From Herbidospora sakaeratensis (GTDB taxonomy: Bacteria; Actinomycetota; Actinomycetes; Streptosporangiales; Streptosporangiaceae), in NCBI RefSeq assembly GCF_001570525.1, contig NZ_BBXC01000021.1:1-64000 (forward strand): DNA of 64,000 nt, in the 5' to 3' direction. Both the position numbers and the translations under genes were made by a program. Position 1 is the stretch's first letter; each line of letters starts with the position of its first letter. This document shows, piece after piece, positions 42,703 through 62,812 of the stretch. The notes under the pieces were generated by a model. That model made no database searches. It had not been told where the DNA came from and saw only the letters and a list, made by a program, of their open reading frames with translations.

Positions 42703-42709
42703 GAGACTC

Positions 42710-42747
42710 GGGTCCGTGACCGCTCGTGGGAAGGCGGTCACGGACCC
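42710..42747. terminator. long perfect hairpin after the sugar operon
   Basis: A perfect 14-bp stem (42710-42723 with 42734-42747) with a 10-nt loop follows the alpha-glucosidase stop by 8 bases and precedes the ABC exporter operon. It has no T-tract. It marks the boundary between the sugar locus and the biosynthetic locus. Confidence 0.7.
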
Positions 42748-42771
42748 GCGCCAAGAGACGGGGGTCTTCAC

Positions 42772-43689
42772 ATGGCACTGATCGAGGCCGAAGGGCTGGA
42801 GAAGCGTTATCCCGGGACCGACTTCACGGCGGTCGCGGGCATCGGGTTCCGGGTGGAACGGGGAGAAGCCTTCGGGTTCCTGGGGCCGAACGGGGCCGGG
42901 AAGTCGTCCACGATGCGGATGCTGGCGTGCGTGTCGCAACCGAGCGGCGGCAGTCTGCGCATCCTGGGCGACGATCCGGTCGTCCACGGCCGGGCGTTAC
43001 GGGCCCGGCTCGGCGTCGTCCCGCAGGACGACGCGCTCGACCTGCAGCTCACCGTCCGCGAGAACCTGATCGTGTACGGCCTGTACTTCGGCCTCTCCCT
43101 GAAGCACATGCGGGCCAAGAGCGCCGAACTGCTGGAGTTCGCCCAGCTCGCCGACAAGGCGGGGGAGCGGGTCGAGCACCTGTCCGGCGGCATGCGGCGC
43201 CGCCTCACGATCGCCCGCTCGCTGGTCAACGACCCGGAGATCCTGCTGCTCGACGAGCCGACCACCGGCCTCGACCCGCAGGCCCGGCACATCCTGTGGG
43301 ACCGCCTGTTCCGCCTGAAGAGCGCCGGCGTGACCCTCATCCTCACCACCCACTACATGGACGAGGCCGAGCAGCTCTGCGACCGCCTGGTCATCATGGA
43401 CAAGGGCCTGATCGCCGATGAGGGCACCCCGCGCGAGCTCATCGACCGCCACGTCACCCGCGAGGTCGTGGAACTGCGGTTCCCGCCCGGGGAGCAGGAG
43501 CAGGCCGCCGAGAAGCTGGGCGGCGACGTGGAGGTGCTGCCCGACCGCCTGCTCTGCTACGCCGACGACGGCGACGCGGCCCTGGCCCGCGTGACGGAAG
43601 CGGGCCTGCGCCCGCTGACCGCTCTGGTGCGCCGGGCCACGCTGGAGGACGTCTTCCTCCGCCTCACCGGCCGATCGCTGACCGACTGA
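42772..43689 (+). CDS. ABC exporter ATPase (DrrA/NodI type), TTA codon
   Basis: The 305-residue protein is an ATP-binding subunit with Walker A GPNGAGKSSTMRM, signature LSGGMRRRLTIAR, Walker B ILLLDEPTTGLDP and the H-loop TTHYM, plus a C-terminal regulatory domain. It is of the DrrA/NodI class that works with ABC-2 permeases, which follow. Codon 76 is TTA (42997-42999). The operon converges on the NRPS-associated cupin gene, and this is the likely export or self-protection system of the biosynthetic cluster. Confidence 0.92.
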   Translation: MALIEAEGLEKRYPGTDFTAVAGIGFRVERGEAFGFLGPNGAGKSSTMRMLACVSQPSGGSLRILGDDPVVHGRALRARLGVVPQDDALDLQLTVRENLIVYGLYFGLSLKHMRAKSAELLEFAQLADKAGERVEHLSGGMRRRLTIARSLVNDPEILLLDEPTTGLDPQARHILWDRLFRLKSAGVTLILTTHYMDEAEQLCDRLVIMDKGLIADEGTPRELIDRHVTREVVELRFPPGEQEQAAEKLGGDVEVLPDRLLCYADDGDAALARVTEAGLRPLTALVRRATLEDVFLRLTGRSLTD

Positions 43690-44441
43690 TGACCCGCGCG
43701 CTGGCCTACTGGCTGTTCCGGTACCGCCGGACCTGGCAGGGCACCGTCGTCGTCTCGGTCGCCAACCCGCTGCTGTTTCTGCTGGCCATCGGGGCCGGGC
43801 TCGGCTCCCTGGTGCGGGGCGACGTCGAGGGCGTGCCCTACCTGGAGTTCTTCGCGCCCGGCATGCTGGCCGCGGCCGCGTTCCAGAACGCGTTCATCGA
43901 CGCCGGGTTCGGGGTGGCGTCGGCACGGGGACGGGAGCGGGTCTACCAGACCGCCGTCGCGACGCCGCTGTCGCCGGGCGAGGTGATGGGCGGGCACCTG
44001 CTGTTCGTCGGGCTGCGGGTGTTCGTGGGAGCGCTCGCGTTCGTCGCGGTGATGGCGGGGTTCGGGCTCTTCTCCTCGTCCGGCACGGCCGTCGCGGTCC
44101 TGCTGGCCGCCACGCTCACCGGGATCGCGCCCGCGGCCGTCGTCGCGGCCTGGGCGGTGACCGTGACCGACTTCCCGCGCCTGAACACGGTGTTCCGGTT
44201 CGTCGTCATGCCGATGTACCTGTTCTCCGGCACGTTCTTCTCCGTCGAGCAGCTGCCCGCCGCCCTCCAGACGATCATGTACGCCCTCCCGCTCTGGCAC
44301 GGCGCCGACCTGTGCCGATCGCTGGCCCTCGGCACCGCCACCCCCGGCACGACCCTGCTGCACGTCGCCTACCTGGGCGTCATGGCGGTCGCCGGGGTCC
44401 TGATCGGGCGGGTCACCTTCCGGAAGGTGCTCTATGTCTAG
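43689..44441 (+). CDS. ABC-2 type transporter permease
   Basis: The 250-residue protein has six hydrophobic segments and the ABC-2 pattern (NPLLFLLAIGAGLGSLV; FFAPGMLAAAAFQNAF; MPMYLFSGTFFSVEQLP). Its ATG overlaps the ATPase stop (TGATG), so it is translationally coupled. It forms the membrane part of the exporter together with the next gene. Confidence 0.9.
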   Translation: MTRALAYWLFRYRRTWQGTVVVSVANPLLFLLAIGAGLGSLVRGDVEGVPYLEFFAPGMLAAAAFQNAFIDAGFGVASARGRERVYQTAVATPLSPGEVMGGHLLFVGLRVFVGALAFVAVMAGFGLFSSSGTAVAVLLAATLTGIAPAAVVAAWAVTVTDFPRLNTVFRFVVMPMYLFSGTFFSVEQLPAALQTIMYALPLWHGADLCRSLALGTATPGTTLLHVAYLGVMAVAGVLIGRVTFRKVLYV

Positions 44442-45210
44442 GCTCCCGGCCGCCGGCGGCGCCCACCTGGTCATGCTGCGCAACGTGTGGGTGCACAAGG
44501 GCGGCACCCCGTGGACGATGGCCCTGTACTCCGTGTACGAGCCGATCCTCTACCTGCTGGCCCTCGGCGTCGGCGTGGGAGCGCTCGTCGGGCGGGTGCC
44601 CGGCGTCGACGTCCCGTACGCCGCCTTCGTCGCCCCCGCCCTGCTCGCGGTGGCCATGATGAACAGCGCCCTGGAGGAGACCACCAACACGGTCTACGGC
44701 AAGCTCACCTTCGACCGCTTCTACCACTCGCTGCTGGTCACCCCGATGACCGTGCGCGGCATGGTCGCCGGGGAACTCCTCTGGGCGGCGGCCCGCGCCC
44801 TGGTCACCGGCGTCGGCTTCCTGGCCGTGATCGCGGCCTTCGGGCTGGTCAGGTCGCCGTGGGCGGTCATGGCCGTGCCGGCGGGCCTGCTGACCGCGTT
44901 CGCCTTCGGCGCGTTCGGCCTGGCGGCGGCGGGCTACGCCCGGGGCTGGCACAGCTTCCAGTACGTCCAGCTCGTGATGTTGCCCATGTTCCTGTTCGCG
45001 ACGACCTTCTACCCCGTCACCGTCTACACCGACTGGGTGCGGCTGCTGGTGGAAGCGCTCCCGCTCTACCACGCGATCGAGCTCTCCCGGGGCCTGGCGC
45101 TGGGCGAGGTCGGGCCGGGTCTGCTGCTGAACGCCGCCTACCTGCTCGTTTTCGGCGGCGTGATGCTGACGGTGGCCCAGTCGCGCTGGGCCACCCTGAT
45201 GTCCAGGTGA
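44434..45210 (+). CDS. ABC-2 type transporter permease (NodJ-like)
   Basis: The 258-residue protein is homologous to the preceding permease (FVAPALLAVAMMNSALEETTNTVYGKLTFDRFYHSLLVTPMT; LPMFLFATTFYPV) and overlaps it by 8 bp. Having two different permeases suggests a heterodimeric exporter. It ends only 6 bp from the convergent cupin gene at 45217. Confidence 0.9.
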   Translation: MSRLPAAGGAHLVMLRNVWVHKGGTPWTMALYSVYEPILYLLALGVGVGALVGRVPGVDVPYAAFVAPALLAVAMMNSALEETTNTVYGKLTFDRFYHSLLVTPMTVRGMVAGELLWAAARALVTGVGFLAVIAAFGLVRSPWAVMAVPAGLLTAFAFGAFGLAAAGYARGWHSFQYVQLVMLPMFLFATTFYPVTVYTDWVRLLVEALPLYHAIELSRGLALGEVGPGLLLNAAYLLVFGGVMLTVAQSRWATLMSR

Positions 45211-45216
45211 CGCGGG

Positions 45217-45534
45217 TCAGATCCCGGTGACCGTGGTCAGCAGCACGACGGAGTCCTCCACCGCTCTCAGGCTGTGACGGCGGTGCGGGATGGGGGCCAG
45301 CGCGCCGCTGTGGTGCGTGGTCCCGTCGAGGACGACCGATCCGGTCAGGACCTGCAGGCTGGCCGCGGGCGGCGCTTGGTGCTCGGCCAGTTCGGAGCCG
45401 GCGGTCAAGGCGATCAGCGTTTGACGCAACGGGCCATCGTGGAGCACCAGATGGGCGTCGCGGCCGTGGGCCGAGCTTCGTGCCTTCTCCAGGCACTCGC
45501 CCGCGCCGGTTGTCAGATCGACGTCGGAGTTCAT
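45217..45534 (-). CDS. small cupin-fold protein linked to the NRPS cluster
   Basis: The 105-residue protein has the two-part cupin pattern (LTAGSELAEHQAPPAASLQVLTGSVVLDGT; LAPIPHRRHSLRAVEDSVVLLTTV). Metal-binding His positions are only partly kept (EHQ and HRRHSL), so it may be non-catalytic. The ATG overlaps the stop of the A-PCP-C synthetase (ATGA), so it is coupled to it. Possible roles are tailoring, binding of an intermediate or regulation. Confidence 0.78.
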   Translation of the reverse strand: MNSDVDLTTGAGECLEKARSSAHGRDAHLVLHDGPLRQTLIALTAGSELAEHQAPPAASLQVLTGSVVLDGTTHHSGALAPIPHRRHSLRAVEDSVVLLTTVTGI

Positions 45535-48455
45535 TCCGTGGCCGTTCCCCGGCCGGCGTCGACGACACCCGTGATCCGCCGGACGAAGTCGGCGGCCAGG
45601 GCGGCGATGGCGGACGCCTCGTAGGCGTGGCGGTTGTAGATGAGCTGGCCGCGCAGCGTCCCGTCGTGCGACTCGCTGATCAGGATCTCCGGCGGGTGCA
45701 GGTCGGGGTCGTCGTCGGGGAGCGTCCACTCCATGATCGGGCCGGCCGGGACGTCGAACTCCTCCGACGGCACCCCCGGCAGGTGGGCCGGGTGTCCCCA
45801 GCTCTCGAACCGGAAGTACGCCGGGAACGGCACCGCCGCGTGCAGGTGGCCCCAGTCGTGGAACTGGCGCTCGGCGGCCGCCAGCGACTCGCGCCTGACG
45901 TGGTCGACCACGTCGGGCAGCGCGCCCGTCCCCGGCACCGTGATCAGGTTCCAGCGGAACAGGCAGCCGACCGCGTTCTCGAACCCGGGCTTCGACCGGC
46001 CGCTGACCGGGGTGGCGACCACGAGCTCGGGGGCCCGCGCCCAGGAGCCCAGGGTCAGCGCCCAGGCCGCCGCCAGCGTCATCGACACCGTGGCGCCCCG
46101 CGAGCGGGCCAGCTCGCGCACGTCCGGGACGTCGAAGGGAAACGCGTCGGCCAGGTAGCGGCGCACGTCGCGGGCCCGTCCGGGGAGGCGCTCCAGAGAC
46201 GCCGGAGCGCCCTCCAGCGTGGCCTCCCACCAGGGGCGGTGCCGCGTCCATTCGAGGCGTTCCCACGCGACCACATCGCCGTAGGAGACCGCCGGGGGCA
46301 GCGGCGAGGGGGCGCCGTGCCGGAAGGCGGAGTAGAGCACGCCGAGCTCCCGCAGCAGCACCGTGGCCGAGCCGCCGTCGAAGACCAGGTGGTGGACGGA
46401 GACGACCAGCACGCACCCTCGCGGCAGCTCGATCACCTCGACCCGCAGCAGCGGCCCGGCCTCGACGTCGAACGGCGCCCGCACCCGCTCGGCCGCCAGC
46501 ATTGCGGCCTCCGCCTCGGTCTCCCGCCGGTGGACGCCGATCGGCACGTCGAGCGAGTCGAGCACCGGCCCCACGCCCGGGTCGCGGAAGACCGTCCGGA
46601 GGCTGTCGTGCCGCCGGACGAGCTCGGCCACCGCCCGCGCCAGCACGCCGAGGTCGAGCCCGCCGGGGACCCGGACCGCGACGTGCACGGGCGGCATGTG
46701 ACGCCGCTCTCCGGAGGCGTGCATCCACCGCCACCAGTGGGCCTGCACTCCGGAGAGGGCGCCGTCCGCCAGAACCACGTCGTCGCCGCCGGAGACGGTG
46801 GCGACGGCGTCCCGGATCTGGGCGGCCTGGCGGCCCAGCACGGGCCGGTCGAACACGAACGTCCCCTCGACGGGGACCCCGAACCTCTCGGCCACCCGGG
46901 CGGCGAGCTGGGCGGCTCTGAGGGAGTCCCCGCCGAGGGCGAAGAAGTCGTCGTCCGCGCTGGTGGCGGGCACCCCGAGCACACCCGTCCACAACCGGGC
47001 CAGGGCCCGCTCCTCGGCCGACTCCAGCGGCCGGCCGGCCGGTCCGGCGACCGTGAACAACGCCCGGACCTCGGCCTTGACGACCTTCCCGAGCTCGTTG
47101 CGCGGCAGCGCGTCGACGAAGACGTAACGCGAGGGCACCTCGTTGCGGGCCAGCCGCTGGTGCAGGAAGGTTCGCAGCCGGTCGGCGGTGAGCTCCGCCT
47201 GTCTCCGCACCACGGCGGCGGCGATCATCTGGCCCATCGTGGCGTGCGGCAGGCCGACCACGGCCGCGTCGGCGACCGACGGGTGCTCCCGGACGGCCGT
47301 CTCGACCTGCGGCAACGAGATCTTGAGGCCGCCCGACTTCACCACGTCGCTCTCCCGGCCGACCAGGTAGAGGTAGCCGTCGGCGTCGAGGCGGCCCAGG
47401 TCGCCCATCCGGGTCCAGCCGTTCCTGAAGGTCTTCGCGCTGGTCCCGGCGTCGCCGTAGTAGGTCCGCTGGGCGGCGGGGGCCCGTAGCCACACCTCGC
47501 CGACCTCGCCGGGGGGCAGCGGCGTGCCCGCCTCGTCGGCGATCTTCAGGTCGCCGCGGGCGGTCGCGCGGCCGACCGAGTCGGGGCGGCGGGGGTCGAC
47601 GATCATCGTCGTCTGGGCCGGGACCGCCTCGGTCGAGGTGTAGTAGTTGACGATCGTGGCCCTCGGGAACGCCTCCGGCAGGCCGGCCGCCACGCGGGGC
47701 GGCAGCGCGTCGGCCGACGAGCTCAGCAGTACCACGCTCGACAGGTCGTGGTCGCGCCAGGCCCCCGAGTCGAGCAGTTCGGTCGCCATCGCGGGCACCA
47801 CGAAGACCGTTCCGGCGCGGAACTTCTCGATCAAGCCGCAGAACTCCGCCGCGTCGAAGCGGGCCGCCGCGACGGCGATGGGATGCGCCGTCAGGGTGTT
47901 GACCAGCATCATCTGCCCGGCGTTGGTGCCGATCGGGAACGCGTGCAGGAAGTGCGCCGAGTGGCCGAAGGCCCGGAAGGGCGGGTTCGGCGCGTGTCCC
48001 CAGGCCAGGTTGGCGTGGGTGGCCAGCACGCCCTTCGGTTTCCCGGTGGTGCCGGAGGTGTAGAGGATCTGGGCCGGGTCGCCGGGGGAGAGGTCGACGT
48101 CGGGCACCCCCGAGCCCGACGGCGCCTCGCTCAGCACCCACTGCGCTTCGCAGTCGTCGGTCATCACCTGGAGCGTGGCCGCCGACTGCCGGGCGGACAG
48201 TGGCACGGCGACGCCACCGGCCCGCAAGACGGCCATGCAGGCGATGGCGAAATCCACCCATCGATCGTTATCGAAGAGCAAGCCGACCCGATCGCCGCGT
48301 TGCAAGCCCTTGCCGAGCAGCGCGCACGCCCCGGAGTCGGCTCCCGCGTCCCATTCGCCGAACGTCAGCTCTCGCCCGTCTGTGCTGATCAGGGCGGTTC
48401 TGTCCGGTTGTTCGACGGCCCTCGCTCGAAGTAAGTGGGGGAGGGTCGCGGTCAT
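45531..48455 (-). CDS. NRPS protein A-PCP-C with acyl/aryl-type adenylation domain
   Basis: The 974-residue protein has an adenylation domain (about 1-500: LYTSGTTGKPKGV, NYYTSTEAVP, NELGKVV with the catalytic Lys), a carrier domain (FFALGGDSL near residue 535, Ser attachment site) and a C-terminal condensation domain (HHLVFDGGS near residue 690 with the HHxxxDG motif). The substrate Asp at the position matching GrsA Asp235 is missing (FPIGTNAGQMM), so the substrate is probably a carboxylic acid without a free alpha-amine. The order A-PCP-C, transcribed divergently from three C-A-PCP modules, leaves one condensation domain more than a linear pathway needs. AGAGGTGG precedes the ATG. Confidence 0.88.
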   Translation of the reverse strand: MTATLPHLLRARAVEQPDRTALISTDGRELTFGEWDAGADSGACALLGKGLQRGDRVGLLFDNDRWVDFAIACMAVLRAGGVAVPLSARQSAATLQVMTDDCEAQWVLSEAPSGSGVPDVDLSPGDPAQILYTSGTTGKPKGVLATHANLAWGHAPNPPFRAFGHSAHFLHAFPIGTNAGQMMLVNTLTAHPIAVAAARFDAAEFCGLIEKFRAGTVFVVPAMATELLDSGAWRDHDLSSVVLLSSSADALPPRVAAGLPEAFPRATIVNYYTSTEAVPAQTTMIVDPRRPDSVGRATARGDLKIADEAGTPLPPGEVGEVWLRAPAAQRTYYGDAGTSAKTFRNGWTRMGDLGRLDADGYLYLVGRESDVVKSGGLKISLPQVETAVREHPSVADAAVVGLPHATMGQMIAAAVVRRQAELTADRLRTFLHQRLARNEVPSRYVFVDALPRNELGKVVKAEVRALFTVAGPAGRPLESAEERALARLWTGVLGVPATSADDDFFALGGDSLRAAQLAARVAERFGVPVEGTFVFDRPVLGRQAAQIRDAVATVSGGDDVVLADGALSGVQAHWWRWMHASGERRHMPPVHVAVRVPGGLDLGVLARAVAELVRRHDSLRTVFRDPGVGPVLDSLDVPIGVHRRETEAEAAMLAAERVRAPFDVEAGPLLRVEVIELPRGCVLVVSVHHLVFDGGSATVLLRELGVLYSAFRHGAPSPLPPAVSYGDVVAWERLEWTRHRPWWEATLEGAPASLERLPGRARDVRRYLADAFPFDVPDVRELARSRGATVSMTLAAAWALTLGSWARAPELVVATPVSGRSKPGFENAVGCLFRWNLITVPGTGALPDVVDHVRRESLAAAERQFHDWGHLHAAVPFPAYFRFESWGHPAHLPGVPSEEFDVPAGPIMEWTLPDDDPDLHPPEILISESHDGTLRGQLIYNRHAYEASAIAALAADFVRRITGVVDAGRGTATE

Positions 48456-48589
48456 GGGCCCACCTCTTCCGCGTCCGGCAGACGGTCGGAAGGGGAGTAA
48501 ATCAGACCAGACGAATCCTCACAAGTATCTAGCAAGTGAATGCAATTTCTGGTCATACTCACGAAATAAGCGAAGCGTTGGGGCAGGCA
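48456..48589. promoter_or_regulatory. divergent promoter region of the NRPS cluster
   Basis: This short gap holds the start regions of the A-PCP-C gene and the large forward operon. It is clearly AT-richer than the flanking genes (48500-48590). I see no strong palindrome. A GTG at 48536 in the frame of the forward gene is an alternative start. Confidence 0.6.
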
Positions 48590-51517
48590 ATGTCACGAGT
48601 ACCACTTTCGGTGCCGCAGAGCGGCATCTGGTTCAACGAACGTCTCGGCGGCGCGGGGGCCGTCCACCACATGCCTTTCGCGATCCGGTTCTCCGGTGAC
48701 CTCGATGTGGACGCGCTGCGCCACGCCTGCGCGGGCGTGGCCACCCTGCACCCCGCCCTGCGGGCGGCGGTCCGCGAGGAGGCCGGGGCTCCCTACCAGG
48801 TCGAGGGGCCGCCGCCGCCCTTCGAGATCATCGAGACCGATCCCGACCGATTAGCCGGCGCGCGGCGGGAGGCGATCCTGCGGCCCTTCGACCTGGCCGC
48901 CGGGCCGCTGACCCGGATCACGCTGTTCCGGCTCGGCCCGGCCGAGCACGAGCTGCTGGTCGTGGCCCACCACCTGGTCTTCGACGGCCAGTCGACCGAC
49001 GTCTTCGTCGCCGACCTGGCCCGCCTCTACGGGCAGGCCGTGCCGGTCGAGGCGCCGGAGTCGTTCGACGTCGCCGCCGAGGCCCGCCGGGTCGCCGAGG
49101 GGCTGCCGGCCGCGCGGGCCTACTGGTCGGGGCGGCCGACCGAGTTCCCCGACGTCGTGCTGCCGGGCCTCGACCGGCCCGACGACGCGGTCCAGCCGGG
49201 GGAGTCGGTCGAGTTCTTCCTGACCGAGCCGATCCTGGAGAAGGCCGCCGCCCAGCTGGGGGTGACCCGCTTCGAGCTGGTCGTGGCCTCGGTGCACGCG
49301 CTGCTGTTCCGGTACGGCAACAGCCGGCCCGTCACCGCCCTCGACCTCGGCACCCGCCAGGCCGAGGCGGGCGAGCGCATCGGCGTCCACGTCAACGAAC
49401 TGCCGTTCACGTCGGACCCCCGGCCCGAGACCCCCTTCACCGACCACGCCCGGCAGGTCAGGGCCGGGCTGCGCGAGCTCTACCGGGTGCGCGAGGTGCC
49501 CCTCGGCCGGGCCGCCCCCGGCACCAGGCCCGGCGTCGCGCTGGCCCCCGTCTCCCTCACCTACCGGCGGCGTATCGCGCCCCCCGAGTTCCCCGGCCTG
49601 CGGACCGAGGTGACCTGGGTGGCGTTCAACCACGTCGCCCGCAACGCCCTGCGGTTCCACCTGGTCGACGGCCCCGACGGGCTCGGCGTGATGCTCCAGT
49701 TCCCGCCCGCGTCGATGCCGCGCCCGGACGCCGAACGCGTCGCCGCCCACCTGCTCGACGTGCTCCGGCACGTCACCGACGACCCGGCGACGCCGCTGGC
49801 CGCGCTGCCGGTCGGCGAGGATCCGCCCGGCCTGTGGTCCCCGCGCGCCCACCCCGGCGCGGCGGCGGTGCCCGACCTGGTGGCGGCCCAGGCCACCCGG
49901 ACCCCGGACGCCGTGGCCGTCATCGGCGACCGCAGGCTCACCTACCGCGAACTGCTGACCGAGGCCGACGCGGTCGCGGCCCGGCTCCAGCGGGCGGGGG
50001 TCCGCCCCGGCGACCTCGTGGCCGTCTCGGCGGCGCGGTCGGAGCGGCTGGTCGCGGGTGTGCTGGGCATCTGGCGGGCGGGCGCGTCCTACCTGCCGCT
50101 CGACCCGGCCTATCCGGCCGACCGGCTCGACTACGTGCTGGCCGACAGCGGCGCGAGCGCGCTGCTGGCCGACGCGACGGCCGGTCTGACCGGCCCGGTG
50201 CGCGTCTCCCTCGACGGAGACGGACCCGAGGGTCACACCCCCGGACCACCCGGCGACCGGGCCTACGTCATCTACACCTCCGGGTCGACCGGACGGCCCA
50301 AGGGCGTCGAGATCGGGCACGCCGCGCTGACGAACCTGCTGTTGTCGATCCGCGACGAGACCCGGTCCGACCCCTCGGCCACCTGGCTGGCCGTCACGTC
50401 GTTGTCGTTCGACATCTCCGGGCTCGAACTGTGGTTGCCGCTGATCACCGGCGGCCGGGTGGTGATCGCGACCGAGGCGCAGGCCGCCGACGGCGACGCG
50501 TTGCGGGCGCTGGTCTCGGCCCACGGCGTCACGCACGTCCAGGCCACGCCCTCGACCTGGCGGCTGCTGGCCGACGCCGGGTTCGAGGCGCCCGTCACCG
50601 CCCTGGTCGGCGGCGAGGCGCTGCCGTTGCCGCTGGCGGCGCGGTTGCGGCCGAGGGTGGCCCGGTTGTTCAACGTCTACGGGCCGACCGAGACCACGAT
50701 CTGGTCGGCCATCGCCGAGGTGCCGCCCGACCCGGCGCGGATCTCGATCGGCGGGCCGCTGGCGGCGACCGGGCTGCTGGTGCTCGACGACGACCTGCGG
50801 CCGGCGCCGACCGGGGTGCCCGGCGAGTTGTACATCACCGGGGCCGGGCTGGCCCGCGGCTATCTCGGCCGGCCCGCGCTGACGGCCGAACGGTTCCTGC
50901 CGTGCCCGTTCGGCGACGCGGGGGCGCGCATGTACCGGACCGGCGACCGGGTCCGGGTCAGGGACGGCGGGCTGGAGTTCCTCGGGCGCACCGACGACCA
51001 GGTCAAGGTCCGGGGGCACCGCATCGAGCTCGGCGAGATCGAGGCCGTGCTGCTCGGGCACGCCCAGGAGGCGGCGGTGGCCGTCCACGACGAGGAGCTC
51101 GTCGCCTACACGGTCGGCGCCGTCGGCGACCTGCGGCGCGAGGCGGCGCGGGTGCTGCCCGCCTACATGGTGCCGAGCGTGTTCGTGGCGCTCGACCGGA
51201 TGCCGCTGACCCCGAACGGCAAACTCGACCGGGCGGCGCTGCCCGCGCCCGAGATGTCGGCCGAGGACGGAATCGGGGCGGCCACCGACGACACGGCCGA
51301 GGTCGTGCGGGAGATCTGGGAGGAGGTCCTCGGGCTCGACCACATCGGCGACGACGAGAGCCTGTTCGAGCTCGGCGGCCACTCGCTGACCATCGCCAGG
51401 ATCGCCGCCCGCATCCACGACCGGCTCGGCGTCGACGTGCCGTTCTACGTGTTCTTCGACGTGCCGACCGTGGCCGGGATCGCCGCCGACGTGGCCGATC
51501 GCCGGGCCGAACTGTGA
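48590..51517 (+). CDS. NRPS module C-A-PCP, glycine-like adenylation domain, TTA codon
   Basis: The 975-residue protein has a condensation domain (about 1-420, HHLVFDGQS), an adenylation domain (about 435-880: YVIYTSGSTGRPKGV, FNVYGPTETTIW, YRTGDRVR, NGKLDR) and a carrier domain (FELGGHSLTIARI). Reading the ten specificity positions by eye gives D-I-L-Q-V-G-V-I-W-K, close to glycine-type codes (DILQLGxIWK). Codon 88 is TTA (48851-48853). The start at 48590 sits directly before the first C-domain motif (VPLSVPQSGIW); a GTG at 48536 would add 18 residues. It is the first gene of a coupled eight-gene operon. Confidence 0.9.
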   Translation: MSRVPLSVPQSGIWFNERLGGAGAVHHMPFAIRFSGDLDVDALRHACAGVATLHPALRAAVREEAGAPYQVEGPPPPFEIIETDPDRLAGARREAILRPFDLAAGPLTRITLFRLGPAEHELLVVAHHLVFDGQSTDVFVADLARLYGQAVPVEAPESFDVAAEARRVAEGLPAARAYWSGRPTEFPDVVLPGLDRPDDAVQPGESVEFFLTEPILEKAAAQLGVTRFELVVASVHALLFRYGNSRPVTALDLGTRQAEAGERIGVHVNELPFTSDPRPETPFTDHARQVRAGLRELYRVREVPLGRAAPGTRPGVALAPVSLTYRRRIAPPEFPGLRTEVTWVAFNHVARNALRFHLVDGPDGLGVMLQFPPASMPRPDAERVAAHLLDVLRHVTDDPATPLAALPVGEDPPGLWSPRAHPGAAAVPDLVAAQATRTPDAVAVIGDRRLTYRELLTEADAVAARLQRAGVRPGDLVAVSAARSERLVAGVLGIWRAGASYLPLDPAYPADRLDYVLADSGASALLADATAGLTGPVRVSLDGDGPEGHTPGPPGDRAYVIYTSGSTGRPKGVEIGHAALTNLLLSIRDETRSDPSATWLAVTSLSFDISGLELWLPLITGGRVVIATEAQAADGDALRALVSAHGVTHVQATPSTWRLLADAGFEAPVTALVGGEALPLPLAARLRPRVARLFNVYGPTETTIWSAIAEVPPDPARISIGGPLAATGLLVLDDDLRPAPTGVPGELYITGAGLARGYLGRPALTAERFLPCPFGDAGARMYRTGDRVRVRDGGLEFLGRTDDQVKVRGHRIELGEIEAVLLGHAQEAAVAVHDEELVAYTVGAVGDLRREAARVLPAYMVPSVFVALDRMPLTPNGKLDRAALPAPEMSAEDGIGAATDDTAEVVREIWEEVLGLDHIGDDESLFELGGHSLTIARIAARIHDRLGVDVPFYVFFDVPTVAGIAADVADRRAEL

Positions 51518-51524
51518 GTGCACG

Positions 51525-54410
51525 GTGAGTGCGCTGTCGGCCGGGCAGCGGCGGCTCTGGTTCCTGCAGCGCCTCGACCCGGCCGACGCGTCGTACAACA
51601 TGCCGGTGGCCCTGCGGATCCGGGGCCGCCTCGACGAGGCGGCGCTGGAGGCCGCGCTCACCGCGCTCACCCTGCGGCACGACGTGCTGCGCGGCCGGTA
51701 CGCCGAGGACGGCGACGGCGACCCGGTCCGGCTGGTCACCCCTGACGGGCCGGCGCTGGAGCGGATCGAGACCGGCGATCCACTGGCGGCCGTGGCCGAA
51801 CGCGCCAACCGGCCGTTCGACCTGGCCGCCGGGCCGGTCGCCCGGTTCACCCTGATCACGGTGGCCCCCGACGACCACGTGCTCTGCCTGGTCGTCCACC
51901 ACATCGCGGCCGACGGCTGGTCGGTCGACGTGCTGCTGCGCGAGCTCGACGTGCTCTACCGGGGCGGCGTGCTCCCCCCGCTGCCGATCACCTTCGCCGA
52001 CCACGTCGCGCGCGGCGAGCGCTCCCATCCCGACTACTGGGCCGAGGAGCTGCGCTGCCTGCCGGTCCTCGACCTGCCCGGCGACCGGCCCCGCGCGACC
52101 GGCGAAGGCGGCCAGATTTTCGCCACCCTGCCGCCGGAGCTGGTCGGCGGGCTGGAGGCGCTCGCCAGGGCGGAACGCGGCACCCTGTTCATGGTGCTGC
52201 TGGCCGCCTTCCAGGTGTTCCTGGCCCGGCACGCCGCCCAGCGCGACGTCTGCGTCGCCGTGCCGGTGCTCGGCCGCGACCGCGTCGACACCGAACCCCT
52301 GGTCGGCTACTTCACCGGCCTGGCGATGCTCCGCGCCGACCTGGGCGACGACCCGCCGTTCACCGAGGCGCTGCGCCGCGCGCGGGGCGCCGTGCTGCGC
52401 TCGTTCGACCACGGCGACGTGCCCGGCGGGGTGCGGTTCCAGGCGATGTTCCAGTACACCCGGACCACGACCCGGCGCCCCCGCCTCGGCGACCTCGACG
52501 TCGAGATCTACGACTCGGGCCTCGCCTCGGCCAAGTGCGACCTGTCCCTCGACGTCTACCAGGGCCCGGCCGAGACCGGGCTGGTGCTCACCTACGACAG
52601 GGGCCGTTTCGACCGGGCCACGGCCGAGCGTTTCGCGCGGCGGTTCCAGGCGCTTTTGGACGACATCGCGAAGCGCCCCGGCGAACGATGCGGCGACCTC
52701 GACCTCTTCTGCGCCCTGGACACCGCGACGACCCCGCCGGAACCGGCGGTCGGCCCGCCGCCCGAGATCGACCCCGATTCCCCGGCCGTCGCCTGCGACG
52801 GCGCCGAGCTCACCTATCGGGAGCTGGGTGAACGCGTCGAGCGTATGGCGTCGGGACTGGCCGCGCGCGGGGTGCGGCCCGGTGACGTCGTGGGGGTGAG
52901 CCTGCGGCGGACCCTCGACCTCGTGCCGGTCCTGCTCGCCGTCTGGCGGGCCGGGGCCGCCTATCTGCCGGTCGATCCGGCATTCCCGGCGGCCCGCATT
53001 TCGACCTTGCTCCGAGACGGGGACGCGCGCATTCTGGTGGCCGACGCGGCGTTCGTGCAGGGAATTGCGGCCGTGCGCCCCGGGGATTTGAGCGGGCCCT
53101 CTCTGACAGAAATCTCCGACCATTCCTTACCCGCGTATGTGCTTTACACATCGGGGTCAACCGGTCTGCCAAAAGGTGTCATGATCGATCGCCAAAGCGT
53201 ATCGGAACGCGTTTCCTGGATGCGCATGGCCTATGACCTGCAGCCCGGCGACCGTGTGGCGCAGTTTTCTGAACTGGGATTCGACGCCCACGTGGAAGAG
53301 ATCTTCCCATCCTTGGAAGCGGGGGCTACGGTCGTGATGCTGCCCAATGGCGGGCGCACCCTGCCGGATTTCCTGACCACTTCCGAAGGGGCGCGAGTAA
53401 CCGTGCTCGATTTGCCGACCTCCTTTTGGCATGCCCTCGTCGAGGAGATCGACGAGATCGCCTGGCCGCCGAATCTTCGGCTCGTCATCCTCGGCGGCGA
53501 CCCCGTCGCGGCCTCGGCGGTCAAGCGCTGGCGCAGCCGTTTCGGCGATCGGGTCCGCCTCGTCAACACCTACGGGCCCACCGAGGCCACCGTGATCGCC
53601 ACGGCCGCCGACCTCGGTGACGGCAAGCCGTCGATCGGCCGCCCGATCGCGGGCTCCACGGTCGCCGTGCTCGACTCCGCCGGCCGGGAGGTGCCGCCGG
53701 GCGTGCCCGGCGAACTCGCCATCGGCGGCGCCGGCGTCGCGTGGGGCTACCTGAACCGGCCGCGCCTGACCGCCGAACGGTTCGTGCCCGCGCCGAACGG
53801 CCGCCGCTACCTCACCGGCGACCGCGCCCGCGTCCGGGCCGACGGCGAGCTGGAGTTCCTCGGCCGCCTCGACGACCAGGTCAAGATCAGGGGCGTCCGC
53901 GTCGAGCCCGGCGAGGTCGAGGCCGCGCTGACCGCCTTCCCCTCGGTGCGGAGCGCCGCCGTGATCGCGCTCGACGGCTCGCTGGCCGCCTACGTCACGG
54001 GCGACCCCGACCCGGCCGATCTGCGCGCCCACCTGCGGCGCACCCTGCCCGAGCACCTGGTGCCGGGCCACATCGTCCCGCTGCCCGAGCTGCCGCTGAC
54101 CCGGAACGGCAAGCTCGACAGGGCGGCGCTGCCCGCCCCCGGCGTGGCCGGAGAGGCGTACGTCGCCCCCCGGACCGACGCCGAGGAGCTGGTCGCACAG
54201 ATATTCGGCGAAGTGCTCGGGGTGCCCCGCGTGGGGGCCGCCGACGACTTCTTCGCCCTCGGGGGGCACTCGCTGCTCGCCACCCGCGTGGTGGCGCGCA
54301 TCCGCCGGGCCGTCGACCTGGTCGTCCCGGTGCGCACCCTGTTCGCCAGCCGTACGGTCGCCGAGTTCGCGGCCGCGGTCGACGAGATCCTGGAGGAGGC
54401 CGAGCGCTGA
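51525..54410 (+). CDS. NRPS module C-A-PCP, mosaic adenylation domain, TTA codon
   Basis: The 961-residue protein starts directly at the first C motif ([11 protein letters not shown]). It has a condensation domain with [10 protein letters not shown], an adenylation domain (about 425-865: [41 protein letters not shown]) and a carrier domain ([14 protein letters not shown]). Specificity positions read D-A-E-D-L-G-T-V-I-K; acidic residues at two pocket positions suggest a basic amino acid such as lysine or ornithine, but this is weak. DNA from about 52975 to 53470 is much less GC-rich than the rest of the gene and holds the TTA codon (53127-53129, codon 535). The GTG start follows the previous stop by 7 bp with no ribosome site of its own. 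Confidence 0.9.
52975..53470 (+). other. composition-shifted segment inside an adenylation domain
   Basis: Over this roughly 500-bp stretch many codons end in A or T (TCA, CCA, AAA, GTA, TTT, GAA, TTG, AAT), while upstream and downstream almost all end in G or C. It covers the region from just before the P-loop motif (TSGSTG) through the substrate-pocket part (FDAHVEEIF and VLDLPTSFW). The edges are approximate and judged by eye. Confidence 0.7.
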
Positions 54411-55696
54411 TGCGCGACGACCTGAACATCCATTTCGCGGTGGTCGGTGCGGGGCTGGCAGGTTCACTGCTGGCCGTGTACCTGGCCGGGCAGGGCCACC
54501 GCGTCGACGTCTACGAACGCCGGGCCGACCCCCGGGTCGCGCCGCCCGACGAGGGCCGGTCGATCAACCTGGGCCTGTCGGCCCGGGGCATCGGCGCCCT
54601 GCGCAAGGCCGGGTTGTGGGACGCGGTGCGCACCCACACCGTCCCGATGCGCGGCCGCTACGTCCACCCGAGGGAGGGCCGGCCGTTCTTCCACCCGTAC
54701 GGGCGCGACCCCGGCGAGATCCTCCACTCGATCCGGCGCGACGCCCTCAGCCGGACCCTGGTCGAGCACGCGGAGAAGCTCCAGGGCGTGCGGTTCTTCT
54801 TCGGCACCCCGGTCACCGAGATCGACCGGGACGCCCCGTCGTTCCGGGCGGGCGGCGAGACGATCACCCCCGATGTGATCGTCGGCGCCGATGGAGCGTT
54901 CTCGGCGGTGCGTGCCGAACTCCTGCGCGGCCGGCCGGCCGACTTCCGGCAGGAGTTCCTGCCGTGGGGCTACAAGGAGCTGCACCTGCCGTTCACCGAA
55001 CGGCTGGAGGCGCTGCACGTCTGGCCCGGAGACCAGGGCCTCATGGTCGCCCACCCCAACGTCGACGGGTCGCTGACCTGCACGTTGTTCATGGACCACC
55101 ACGATCTCGCCCGGCCCGACCTGGCGGCGTTCGTGAAGAGCGTGCTGCCGGCCGCCGACCTGCCCGACCTGGCGGGGCAGCTGGCCCGCAACCCGGTCGG
55201 CCACCTGGTCACCGTGCGGACCTCCAAGTGGCACGAGGACGGCCGCGCGGTGCTGATCGGCGACGCCTGCCACGCCGTCTACCCCTTCTACGGGCAGGGC
55301 ATGAACTCGGCGTTCGAGGACTGCGTCGTCCTCGCCGAGTGCGTCGAGGCCCGGCCCGGCGATCTCGGCGCGGCGTTCGCCGCGTACCAGCGGCGCAGGA
55401 AACCGCACACCGACGTGCTCGCCGACCTGTCGGCGGACAACTTCCTGGAACTCCGCGACCGGCTGCGCTCCCCGCTCCACCTGGCCCGCAAGCAGGTGGA
55501 CACCGTGCTCAGCCGGCTGCTGCCCGACAGGTGGCGACCGCTCTACACGATGGTCAGCCACACCACCATGCCGTACGGGGAAGCGCTGCGGCGTGCGCGA
55601 ACGCAGGACCGGATCGTCCGCGCGGGAGGGATGACGGCGGCCGTGGGGCTGGCGGCCGCGCTCCTCTGGCGCCGCGACAGGAGGCACCCCAAGTGA
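54410..55696 (+). CDS. kynurenine 3-monooxygenase-like FAD monooxygenase
   Basis: The 428-residue protein has the FAD Rossmann motif GAGLAGSLLAVYLAGQG, then the strongly KMO-like SINLGLSARGIGALRKAGLW and PMRGRYVHPREG. It also has GADGAFSAVR and the second FAD motif LIGDACHAVYPFYGQGMNSAFEDC. KMO hydroxylates kynurenine at C3. A C-terminal hydrophobic stretch (TAAVGLAAALLW) resembles the membrane tail of KMO. No kynureninase or tryptophan dioxygenase gene is in the window, so the product may be 3-hydroxykynurenine itself or another aromatic. The ATG overlaps the upstream stop (TGATG). Confidence 0.85.
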   Translation: MRDDLNIHFAVVGAGLAGSLLAVYLAGQGHRVDVYERRADPRVAPPDEGRSINLGLSARGIGALRKAGLWDAVRTHTVPMRGRYVHPREGRPFFHPYGRDPGEILHSIRRDALSRTLVEHAEKLQGVRFFFGTPVTEIDRDAPSFRAGGETITPDVIVGADGAFSAVRAELLRGRPADFRQEFLPWGYKELHLPFTERLEALHVWPGDQGLMVAHPNVDGSLTCTLFMDHHDLARPDLAAFVKSVLPAADLPDLAGQLARNPVGHLVTVRTSKWHEDGRAVLIGDACHAVYPFYGQGMNSAFEDCVVLAECVEARPGDLGAAFAAYQRRRKPHTDVLADLSADNFLELRDRLRSPLHLARKQVDTVLSRLLPDRWRPLYTMVSHTTMPYGEALRRARTQDRIVRAGGMTAAVGLAAALLWRRDRRHPK

Positions 55697-56396
55697 TCAC
55701 CCACCCCGACGAGCCGACCCTGCGCCTCTTCGACGTCAAGGACGTCGAGAGCGGGCGCCCCCTCCACCCGCTGGGCGCCATGTACATCCGCCAGCTCCGC
55801 ACCGTGACGGCCTGGGCGCGCGAGTACCTGTGCCGCCCCCACCCGGAACTGGGCCGCCGCGGGCCCGTCTGCCCGTACGCCCAGGGCTCCATCGACCGGG
55901 GCCGGTTCCTGCTCGCCATCCGCCCCGGGCGGCCCAAGACCGTCGAGGAGGTGGTCGCCGCCGTCGAGCCCTACCGCCAGTGGTTCGGCGAACTCGCCCC
56001 GCGTTCAATTGAGGCAGATTCCCCGGCGCGAGCCACGGTCGGCCTTCGGCCGCCCGCGTCTCGCTTGATCGCCGACTCCATGCACACGGCCGTGCTGGTG
56101 CTGTTCCCCGACGCGGGCCGGCGGCTCGACCTGATCGACGGCGCCCAGGAGATCCTCAAGGACCGGCACGTGCCCGCCGGGGTCATGGTCGGCGAGTTCC
56201 ACGACGGCCCGCCCGACAAGGGCGGCCTGTGGAACCCGCTGCTGCGCCCGCTGGAGGCGCCGGTCCCGATGCTCGTCGTGCGGCACATGGTCAGCACCGA
56301 CCTGCCGTTCCTGACCTCGCGCGACCAGCACGTGTCGGCGTACCGCGCCATCTTCGGCGACCGGATCCCGGCCCATCTGCGGGACGTGGTGCCCTC

Positions 56397-56400
<4 letters not shown>
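55693..56400 (+). CDS. DUF6875-like protein with an in-frame repeat insertion
   Basis: The 235-residue protein has GRRGPVCPYAQGSIDRGRFLLAI, VEPYRQWFGELAP, VLVLFPDAG, VMVGEFHDG and PVPMLVVRHMVSTDLPFL. This pattern matches what I recall as DUF6875, a family of unknown function often found near biosynthetic genes. About 18 residues (SIEADSPARATVGLRPPASR) between GELAP and the VLVLFPD strand are encoded by a palindromic repeat rather than by family sequence, and lengthen that loop in frame. It may still be functional. It overlaps the flavoenzyme and the next NRPS gene by 4 bp each (GTGA). Confidence 0.78.
56013..56066. repeat. palindromic REP-like repeat, copy B, inside a coding sequence
   Basis: The 40-bp core at 56027-56066 matches the copy at 1351-1390 in 37 of 40 positions. 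Weaker similarity upstream begins near 56013. The element is palindromic (outer GCGAG/CTCGC, inner CGGCC/GGCCG). It keeps the reading frame open, and the few bases just before it (TTCAATTGAGGCAGATTC) are AT-rich compared with the gene. Confidence 0.75.
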
Positions 56401-60433
<4,033 letters not shown>

Positions 60434-60449
<16 letters not shown>

Positions 60450-61732
60450 GATTCGGCATCGTCTGGTTGTCGTCGCTGGTCTCCGGCGTCGGATCGAGCC
60501 TGACGGGCTTCGTGCTGGGCGTCTGGGTCTACCAGAACACCCAGTCGACCACCCTGTTCGCGCTGGTCATGTTGTCGGGGCTGCTGCCCGCGATCCTGGT
60601 CGGCCCGTTCGCCGGGGTGATCGTCGACCGGTTCGACCGGCGGCGCGTCCTGATCATCAGCGACTGCGTCGTGGCGGCCAGCACCGGCGTGCAGGCGCTG
60701 CTGCTCTACAACGACGCGCTCCAGGTGTGGCACATCTGCCTCGGCTCGCTCGTGGGCGCGATCTGCGGCACCCTGCACCTGACGACCTACCAGGCGATGA
60801 CCCCGCTGCTCATCCCCGAACGCCACCTCGCCCGCGCCAACGGCCTGATGCAGATCACCATGGCCACCCAGATCGCCGCCCCGCTGGCGGCCGGGGCGCT
60901 GCTCGGCGCGATCGGCATGACCGGCGTGCTGGTGCTCGACCTGGTCACCTTCGCGCTGGCGGTGACCACGCTGCTGGTGGTCAAGCTGCCCGCCTCGGTG
61001 GTGAAGGCCCCCGGGGCCGGCTCGGCCAGGGCCCCGCTGGCCGATCTGTCGTACGGCTGGCACTACCTGCGGCGGCGGCGCGACCTGATGTCGCTGACGC
61101 TGACGTTCACGGCGTACAACTTCTGCTTCGCCGTCGCCGGGGTGCTGGTGCAGCCGCTGATCCTGTCGTTCGGGTCGCCGGCCGTGCTGGGCGCGCTGAT
61201 GTTCGCCGGCGGGTCGGGGGTGTTCCTCGGCGGCCTGGTGATGGGCGTGTGGGGCGGCCCGAAGAAGCGCGTGCGCGGCATGGGCGTGTTCATGCTCCTC
61301 GGCTCGCTCTTCCTGGTGCTGCACACGGTGCGGCCCGACCCGTGGGTGGTCGCGTTCGCGGCGGCGGCGTTCCTGTTCACGCTGCCGGTGGTGCAGGGCT
61401 CGGGCAACGCGGTTCTCCAGTCGGGCATCGAGCCCGACAGCCTCGGCCGGGTGCTCGGCACGGTGCACTCGATCGGCGGCATCGCCTCCCCGTTCGCCTA
61501 CCTGCTGGCCGGCCCGCTGGCCGAGCACGTGGCCGGCCCGCTGATGCGGCCCGACGGGGCGCTCGCGTCCAGCGCGGGTTCGCTGATCGGCACCGGCGAG
61601 GGCCGGGGCATCGCGCTCGTCATCCTGGCCGACGCCGTGATCCTGCTGCTGGTCGCGGTACGGGTGCTGTTCCTGCGCGAACCCGCGCCGAAGAAGACCG
61701 AGGAGGCGCCCGATGCCGTTGCCACCGCATGA
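60434..61732 (+). CDS. MFS transporter (enterobactin-exporter EntS-like)
   Basis: The 432-residue protein has about 11-12 membrane helices and the MFS loop GPFAGVIVDRFDRRRVLIISD between helices 2 and 3. The type resembles EntS and macrolide exporters. The GTG at 60434 overlaps the NRPS stop by 16 bp and has GGAGG 5 bases upstream. Its place in the operon suggests it exports the NRPS product, in addition to the ABC exporter. Confidence 0.9.
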
Positions 61733-62642
61733 CCCCGGCCCGTCGACCGACCTGATCGGCGCGATGTCCCTCTACGCCGCCGACGCGGCGGCCCGGCTGG
61801 GCGTCTTCGACGCGCTCCCCGGCGCGCCGGCCGAGCTGGCCAAGGAGACCGGCGCCGACGAGGAGGGCCTGGCCCTCCTGCTCGACCTGCTGACGACGAC
61901 GGGCTACCTCGTGCGCTCCGACGACGTCTACACGGCGTCGCCGATGTGGACCGACTCCGGCTGGGACACCCCCGTCCGCCTGTGGGCGGCCATCGTCGGC
62001 GAGTTCTGGCGCGACCTGTACGACGGCCTGGCCACGGGCCGCCCGCGCGCCGACTTCTACCGCTGGTTGTCGTCGCGGCCCGAGCCGCTGGCCGTCTTCC
62101 ACCGGCTGCAGTCGGGCCTGGCGGCCTGGCTCGCCGAAGAGGTCGTCGGCCTGGTCCCGATGACCGCCGGGCGGCTGGCCGACGTCGGCGGCGGCCACGG
62201 CGTCTTCGCCAAGGCGTTCATGGACGCCACCCCCGGCCTGGACGCGGTGGTCGTCGACCTGCCCGGCACGCCCAGCGTGGTCCCGCTGGTGGCGGCCGAC
62301 CTGGCGGAGCCGCTGACGCTGGCGGGCTACGACCACGTGCTGCTGTTCAACGTCGTGCACGGCTTCTCCCGCGAACGGGCCCGGGGGCTGGTGCGCGAGG
62401 CGGTGGCGTCGGGAGCCGACGTCCACATCCTGGAGACCACGACGACCCCGCGCGGCGGCGTGGCCGACCAGGCCTTCACCGAGGGCTTCGCGCTGAACCT
62501 GTGGCTCACCCAGGGAGGCCGCCTCTACACGGCCGGCGAACTGGAGGGCTGGCTCCGCGAGGCGGGCGCCGCCGACGTCACCCGAACCGACCTGACCCGT
62601 TCCCCCACGCACACCCTCATCACCGCAAGGAGCACGTCGTGA
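61713..62642 (+). CDS. SAM-dependent O-methyltransferase (COMT-like)
   Basis: The 309-residue protein has an N-terminal helical dimerisation domain ([18 protein letters not shown]) and a Rossmann domain with the SAM motif [15 protein letters not shown], the family-2 O-methyltransferase layout. [12 protein letters not shown] and [12 protein letters not shown] follow. The catalytic-type His is in VVHGFS. A phenolic hydroxyl such as one made by the flavoenzyme is a plausible target. The start overlaps the transporter by 20 bp. Confidence 0.9.
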
Positions 62643-62812
62643 CCCACCTGGTCGTCCGCAACGACGAGGAGCAGTACTCCCTCTGGCCCGCGGGCCGCGA
62701 GATCCCCGACGGCTGGCACCCGGACGGTTTCGAGGGCACCCGCGAGGAGTGCCTGGCCCACATCGAGGAGGTCTGGACGGACATGCGCCCCAAGAGCGCC
62801 CGCCCGGCCTAA
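62639..62812 (+). CDS. MbtH-like protein
   Basis: The 57-residue protein has the MbtH core: [10 protein letters not shown] (usually NxEGQYSLWP), [27 protein letters not shown] in parts. These small partners activate NRPS adenylation domains. It is the last gene of the operon, overlapping the methyltransferase stop (GTGA). Three adenylation domains in the operon are possible clients. Confidence 0.92.

What the first reader, a model, noticed from the sequence alone, without database searches (positions are those of the whole stretch)
42772..62812. Apparently complete NRPS cluster for a capped tripeptide aldehyde or imine
A divergent A-PCP-C protein, three C-A-PCP modules with the last ending in a reductase, a KMO-like flavoenzyme, an O-methyltransferase, MbtH, an MFS exporter and an ABC exporter form one locus with strong terminators at both ends. 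The domain order is seen in the sequence; the aldehyde release is known for R domains; the product class is inferred. I cannot match this gene set to a named metabolite.
Basis: partly seen in the sequence, partly recalled or inferred. Interest (0 to 1): 0.9.

Follow-up and report, generated by a model that had tools for sequence, protein, structure and literature searches.

The report
Peptide-aldehyde cluster with modified-tryptophan cassette
This is a real bacterial gene cluster that probably makes a small capped peptide ending in an aldehyde, and its last building block looks like an unusual oxygen-decorated tryptophan-type amino acid made by a set of enzymes that recurs in other bacteria; I found no known product for it.

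Summary
It holds four NRPS proteins: A-PCP-C on the minus strand, two C-A-PCP proteins, and C-A-PCP-R. With them are a KMO-like flavoenzyme, an O-methyltransferase, MbtH, an MFS exporter and an ABC exporter.

Comparison shows why this gene matters. The KMO-like gene is in 7 of 7 held genomes of the genus. A KMO-like / DUF6875 / C-A-PCP-R core, usually with the methyltransferase, recurs in 23 loci, one of them in a betaproteobacterium. The terminal A-domain code is identical in 21 of 22 readable copies (DAGDMGHVC). All 23 KMO-like proteins keep the residues that hold the amino-acid end of kynurenine but share four substitutions in the substrate pocket; none of 69 other KMO-family proteins has any of the four.

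Best reading: DUF6875, the KMO-like enzyme and the O-methyltransferase build a dedicated oxygenated tryptophan-pathway amino acid. The last module loads it, and the reductase releases acyl-Gly-(basic?)-X as an aldehyde. Product, residue and chemistry are inferred. I found no named product in the papers searched; MIBiG was not available. This is a new variant of NRPS reductive-release clusters.

The parts
42709..42748 (.). perfect 15-bp hairpin, left end
   Evidence: not called as a terminator
42772..43689 (+). abcA, ABC ATPase
   Evidence: PF00005; found near the cluster in six further genus genomes and in G033
43689..44441 (+). abcB, ABC-2 permease
   Evidence: PF01061
44434..45210 (+). abcC, ABC-2 permease
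   Evidence: PF01061; orthologues above 70% identity only in G000, G003 and G033 among 41 family genomes, all with the cluster; no match in G001
45531..48455 (-). N1: acyl-ligase-like A, PCP, C; probable loader of the N-terminal cap
   Evidence: PF00501, PF00550, PF00668; no Asp at the 235 position in 10 of 10 aligned copies, window included
48456..48589 (.). divergent intergenic and leader region, nearly identical in 7 genus genomes and partly kept in another genus; probable shared promoter/leader
   Evidence: the GTG at 48536 is missing in 2 of 8 (G001, G033), the ATG at 48590 is kept in 8 of 8
48590..51517 (+). N2: C-A-PCP, code DILQLGVIW (Gly-like, recalled)
51525..54410 (+). N3: C-A-PCP, code DAEDIGTVI (basic residue, Lys-like, recalled)
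54410..55696 (+). KMO-like FAD monooxygenase with remodelled ring pocket
   Evidence: PF01494; solved KMOs, best E 1.7e-75; diagnostic residues
55693..56400 (+).
   Evidence: PF21780 E 2.6e-57; invariant Cys60; model resembles the heme enzyme AglA
56007..56066 (+). 60-bp in-frame insertion in the DUF6875 gene, seen only in this strain
   Evidence: absent in 20 of 20 relatives aligned
56397..60449 (+). N4: C-A-PCP-R, code DAGDMGHVC, reductive release
   Evidence: PF00668, PF00501, PF00550, PF07993 and TIGR01746; code nearly invariant in the family
60446..61732 (+). MFS exporter
   Evidence: PF07690
61713..62642 (+). O-methyltransferase with dimerisation domain
   Evidence: PF00891, PF08100
62639..62812 (+). 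MbtH-like protein
   Evidence: PF03621
62822..62856 (.). perfect 14-bp hairpin, right end
   Evidence: not called as a terminator

Best explanation
The cluster makes an N-acylated tripeptide (acyl-Gly-basic-X) whose last residue X is a dedicated oxygenated amino acid from the tryptophan pathway, released by the reductase domain as an aldehyde. Proposed steps: (1) DUF6875, a heme-thiolate oxygenase, hydroxylates the ring of L-Trp or a close derivative (inferred from family reports and fold). (2) The KMO-like flavoenzyme hydroxylates that free amino acid again; it keeps the residues that hold the amino-acid end in KMO but has a changed ring pocket (pocket changes shown, reaction inferred). (3) The O-methyltransferase caps a phenol (inferred). 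(4) The N4 A domain, whose code is nearly invariant in the family, loads X (conservation shown, identity inferred). (5) N1 supplies an acyl cap, N2 Gly and N3 probably a basic residue (codes shown, meanings recalled). (6) The R domain reduces the thioester to an aldehyde (domain shown, product inferred), which may cyclise. MFS and ABC pumps export it (inferred).
Confidence: 0.55

Rival explanations
1. Kynurenine route: host enzymes turn Trp into kynurenine, the cluster KMO makes 3-hydroxykynurenine or a relative, DUF6875 adds a second oxygen and the OMT methylates; N4 loads a kynurenine-type residue whose aldehyde may close onto the aniline nitrogen.
For: KMO family membership and amino-acid-end residues are kept; Trp dioxygenase is matched in 23 of 23 genomes.
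Confidence: 0.22
2. The oxygenases and OMT act late, on the carrier-bound or released peptide, and N4 loads plain Trp or another common aromatic residue.
For: Flavin enzymes often tailor after assembly (general knowledge); the timing is not shown by sequence.
Against: The residues that hold a free amino-acid end in KMO are kept in 23 of 23; the N4 code has an Asp and a His at unusual places (recalled comparison) and is nearly invariant.
Confidence: 0.12
3. An ordinary peptide-aldehyde protease inhibitor with an Arg- or Lys-type end; the flavin and heme enzymes modify the cap.
For: Small peptide aldehydes made by NRPSs are a known class in Streptomyces (PMC10548850, start of abstract in the listing); the N3 code looks basic (meaning recalled).
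Against: The cassette travels with N4, not with N1: KMO-like, DUF6875 and N4 remain in loci where no N1-type A domain is seen.
Confidence: 0.08

Closest known systems
Zigralone cluster (zigI DUF6875 + zigH methyltransferase), PMC13307353
   Same: A DUF6875 protein and a methyltransferase are needed for the methoxy group on a Trp-derived ring
   Different: No NRPS and no KMO-like enzyme in the gene list given; a diterpenoid quinolone pathway
Kynurenine 3-monooxygenase (Pf-KMO, solved structures)
   Same: Sequence family, FAD-binding domain, R84/Y98/N369 kept
   Different: Ring-pocket residues A56, I106, L226 and M373 changed in all 23 family members; sits in an NRPS operon, beside DUF6875 in 22 of 23
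Small peptide aldehyde NRPS clusters with a terminal R domain
   Same: C-A-PCP-R ending, short peptide
   Different: Dedicated oxygenase/methyltransferase cassette and a nearly invariant terminal code
AglA / YqcI-YcgG heme hydroxylases (PMC12866846)
   Same: Closest solved fold to the DUF6875 model; Cys-ligated heme hydroxylase acting on an arginine residue
Saframycin-type clusters (recalled, not compared here)
   Same: Acyl start, Gly module before a C-A-PCP-R module, modified aromatic residue made by a heme hydroxylase and an O-methyltransferase
   Different: Tyr-derived residue with C-methylation; here DUF6875 and a KMO-like enzyme

Membership tests
NRPS with reductive release | Complete C-A-PCP modules with core motifs | tested here: met
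NRPS with reductive release | Terminal thioester reductase domain with NAD(P)-binding and Tyr/Lys motifs | tested here: met
   TIGR01746 244.7 bits against cut-off 213.35; GATGFLG, YNQTK
NRPS with reductive release | Aldehyde (or alcohol, imine) product | not testable with these tools
   needs chemistry
Kynurenine 3-monooxygenase | Sequence family and residues holding the amino-acid end (Pf R84, Y98, N369) | tested here: met
Kynurenine 3-monooxygenase | Conserved ring pocket (Pf A56, I106, L226, M373) | tested here: not met
   G, L, H, L in 23 of 23
Kynurenine 3-monooxygenase | Hydroxylation of kynurenine | not testable with these tools
   needs enzyme assay
DUF6875 / 'cytochrome P422' | Pfam PF21780 over its cut-off | tested here: met
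   194.2 bits against 24.5
DUF6875 / 'cytochrome P422' | Cys-type heme site as in AglA | tested here: inconclusive
DUF6875 / 'cytochrome P422' | L-Trp oxidation | not testable with these tools
   reported for the family in PMC13307353
Ureido peptide aldehydes (antipain/MAPI type, recalled) | First A domain activates an alpha-amino acid (recalled criterion) | tested here: not met
   no Asp at the 235 position in 10 of 10 N1-type A domains, window included
Saframycin-type tetrahydroisoquinoline NRPS (recalled) | C domain acting as Pictet-Spenglerase on a Tyr-derived residue | not tested
   no SfmC sequence compared

The most novel reading that the evidence does not exclude
A transferable 'warhead' cassette, found in several actinobacterial genera and in a betaproteobacterium: a heme-thiolate DUF6875 oxygenase and a KMO retargeted to hydroxytryptophan (usually with an O-methyltransferase) make a twice-oxygenated tryptophan, one C-A-PCP-R module with a nearly invariant code loads it and releases it as an electron-rich tryptophanal, and different N-terminal assembly lines are plugged onto it.
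Probability: 0.35. Interest if true: 0.75.

Novelty: new variant of a known kind. Interest (0 to 1): 0.6.

Why it matters
If right, it names a testable route to an amino acid for which I found no pathway in print, gives a function to a flavoenzyme subfamily that sequence searches file under KMO and to a DUF6875 branch, and links 23 clusters without a product that I could find to one shared reactive end group that can be hunted by aldehyde trapping.

Tried and rejected
Trp dioxygenase as a test between Trp and kynurenine routes: matched in 23 of 23 genomes, so it does not discriminate. Neighbour genes in relatives as chemical clues: glycosyltransferase, sulfatase, sulfotransferase, B12 radical SAM and stand-alone C domains, none diagnostic for Trp; I had hoped the radical SAM protein was a TsrM-type Trp methylase, but its best NCBIfam matches are far below their cut-offs and the PDB matches are weak. 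The 9-letter code was not found in print. DUF6875 profile against PDB sequences: best E 0.024, nothing meaningful. Sequence between abcC and N1 in G001, G004 and G005: no further cluster gene recognised by eye; not family-searched. The hypergeometric value treats positions as independent and was computed after seeing the data. Weak KMO hits L015-L023 were not used. G033's N4 is cut by its contig end and is left out of the code count. The A-domain finder (a motif pattern) missed some domains, among them N3 of G002 and G006. In one search only 12 candidates per genome were scored, so 10 of 246 may be low.

Full report
Observation. The locus was re-read from sequence and typed against Pfam and NCBIfam. 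N1 (45531-48455, minus) is A-PCP-C, N2 (to 51517) and N3 (51525-54410) are C-A-PCP, and N4 (56397-60449) is C-A-PCP-R. Core motifs are intact in all four. The gene between the flavoenzyme and N4, 55693-56400, was missed: it is DUF6875, PF21780, E 2.6e-57. Perfect hairpins of 15 and 14 bp flank the locus, but the terminator scan calls neither. The tRNA call at 50597-50689 lies inside N2 and is probably false.

Distribution. A whole-genome search with the KMO-like protein found an orthologue of at least 92% identity in 7 of 7 held genomes of the genus, this one included. The six others have N1 to MbtH in full; the ABC genes stand 3-6 kb from N1 in G001, G004 and G005, and in G001 abcC and more than half of abcB gave no match. 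G033, another genus, has the same arrangement up to its contig end (NRPS, KMO-like and DUF6875 at 50-70% identity, ABC genes at 66-80%). G034 and G021 keep KMO-like, DUF6875, OMT, MFS and N4 with other or no upstream modules seen. A scan of genome contigs gave 13 further loci in Nonomuraea (2), Rhizohabitans, Actinokineospora, Virgisporangium, Salinispora, Micromonospora, Amycolatopsis, Streptomyces (3), Streptosporangium and Rugamonas rubra, a betaproteobacterium. With the window that makes 23 loci. DUF6875 lies within 10 kb in 23 of 23 and next to the KMO-like gene in 22 of 23; in Virgisporangium the only copy seen is a distant one about 9 kb away. N4 is present in 23 of 23, cut in G033. An OMT homologue is seen in 18 of 23, one of these cut by the end of its locus; in G033, L049, L050 and L051 the stretch or contig ends soon after the MFS gene or earlier, and in Rugamonas none was found. 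In an even draw of 246 genomes of the class, DUF6875 was found in 10 at E up to 1e-15; 2 of those (this genome and G021) show the KMO-like/N4 cassette, and in the stretches of up to 20 kb read from the other 8 it does not appear.

Terminal specificity. The nine code positions of N4 are DAGDMGHVC in 21 of 22 readable copies and DAGDLGHVC in Micromonospora. The Rugamonas and S. griseus copies are only 47% identical to the window's A domain, hardly closer than the nearest A domains with other codes (44-46%). Conservation of the pocket over that distance suggests that all these clusters end in the same residue X. Upstream codes vary; a DILQLG code (Gly-like, recalled) occurs in 13 of 23 loci. In the window N2 reads DILQLGVIW (Gly-like) and N3 DAEDIGTVI (basic, Lys-like); these meanings are recalled. 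The N1 A domain has no Asp at the position that binds the alpha-amino group in 10 of 10 aligned copies, so it should load an acyl cap. Positions were assigned by motif alignment, not on a structure.

The flavoenzyme. Its nearest solved relatives are KMOs (best E 1.7e-75). Against 69 other KMO-family proteins, 14 positions are diagnostic for the 23 cluster copies. Four of them, G55, L105, H215 and L348, are Pf-KMO A56, I106, L226 and M373 by the printed alignment; none of the 69 has any of these four residues. PMC5477544 (passages) names A56, I106 and M373 as lining the kynurenine ring and L226 as part of a water-filled pocket. R84, Y98 and N369, which hold the amino-acid end of substrate or inhibitor there, are kept in 23 of 23. 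Four of 13 named pocket positions among 14 diagnostic ones has hypergeometric P 4e-4 (post hoc, positions treated as independent). In 8 of 10 genomes searched with both queries a KMO 44-46% identical to the query lies about 1.3 kb from a Trp dioxygenase (coordinates; G001 has the two on different contigs, no such pair was listed for G021, and G033's copy is read with one stop). I read the cluster enzyme as a second KMO retargeted to a different, more polar aromatic amino acid.

Mechanism. Shown: gene content, domain order, motifs, conservation, pocket changes. Inferred: DUF6875 hydroxylates Trp; the KMO-like enzyme hydroxylates the product again; the OMT methylates a phenol; N4 loads X; the R domain releases an aldehyde. 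If DUF6875 puts the oxygen on C7, as expected for ZigI, this is the carbon that becomes C3 of kynurenine, the one KMO oxidises (general chemistry), so the KMO-like enzyme would need a new target, which fits its changed pocket. The aldehyde may remain, be reduced or cyclise. One C domain, probably that of N1, is in excess; its role is open.

Novelty. Searches of the open full-text library gave no NRPS cluster with this cassette and no product; MIBiG and most subscription journals were not available. Each enzyme class is known; I know of no description of the combination or of its conserved terminal specificity, so I file it as a new variant of a known kind.

Noticed in passing
window 56007-56066: The DUF6875 gene of this strain carries a 60-bp in-frame insertion (20 residues) absent from 20 of 20 relatives aligned; the model has its lowest-confidence block there. 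It may affect activity in this strain.
   Followed up: partly
window 45217-45531 (minus): A small cupin-like ORF (by eye; no Pfam hit) next to N1 gave no match in the cluster stretches of relatives but occurs elsewhere in two of six other genus genomes at 90-93% identity: probably a recent local insertion.
   Followed up: partly
window 48456-48590: The divergent intergenic and leader region is nearly invariant in the genus and strongly kept in G033 although the flanking N1 and N2 proteins there are 52-63% identical; possible regulator binding site. N2 probably starts at 48590.
   Followed up: partly
L147 8429-18480; L148 1-13088: Other NRPS loci with DUF6875, MbtH and MFS (and a weak OMT match in L147) but no KMO-like match share the code DPWDFGQID in the one A domain read from each: perhaps a second DUF6875-linked NRPS family.
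   Followed up: no
L052 1699-7027; L054 2654-4513: Streptomyces versions of the cassette sit beside a B12-type radical SAM protein; in L052 also a sulfotransferase, a sulfatase-like protein and another MFS transporter, which could mean a sulfated phenol.
   Followed up: partly
L038 14927-16612; L071 1668-3148: In G034 (L038) a C-PCP protein without an A domain lies upstream of the cassette, so its PCP must be loaded in trans; L071 shows a C and a PCP without A in two overlapping frames.
   Followed up: no
window 50597-50689: ARAGORN calls a tRNA-Gly inside the N2 coding frame; probably a false positive.
   Followed up: no
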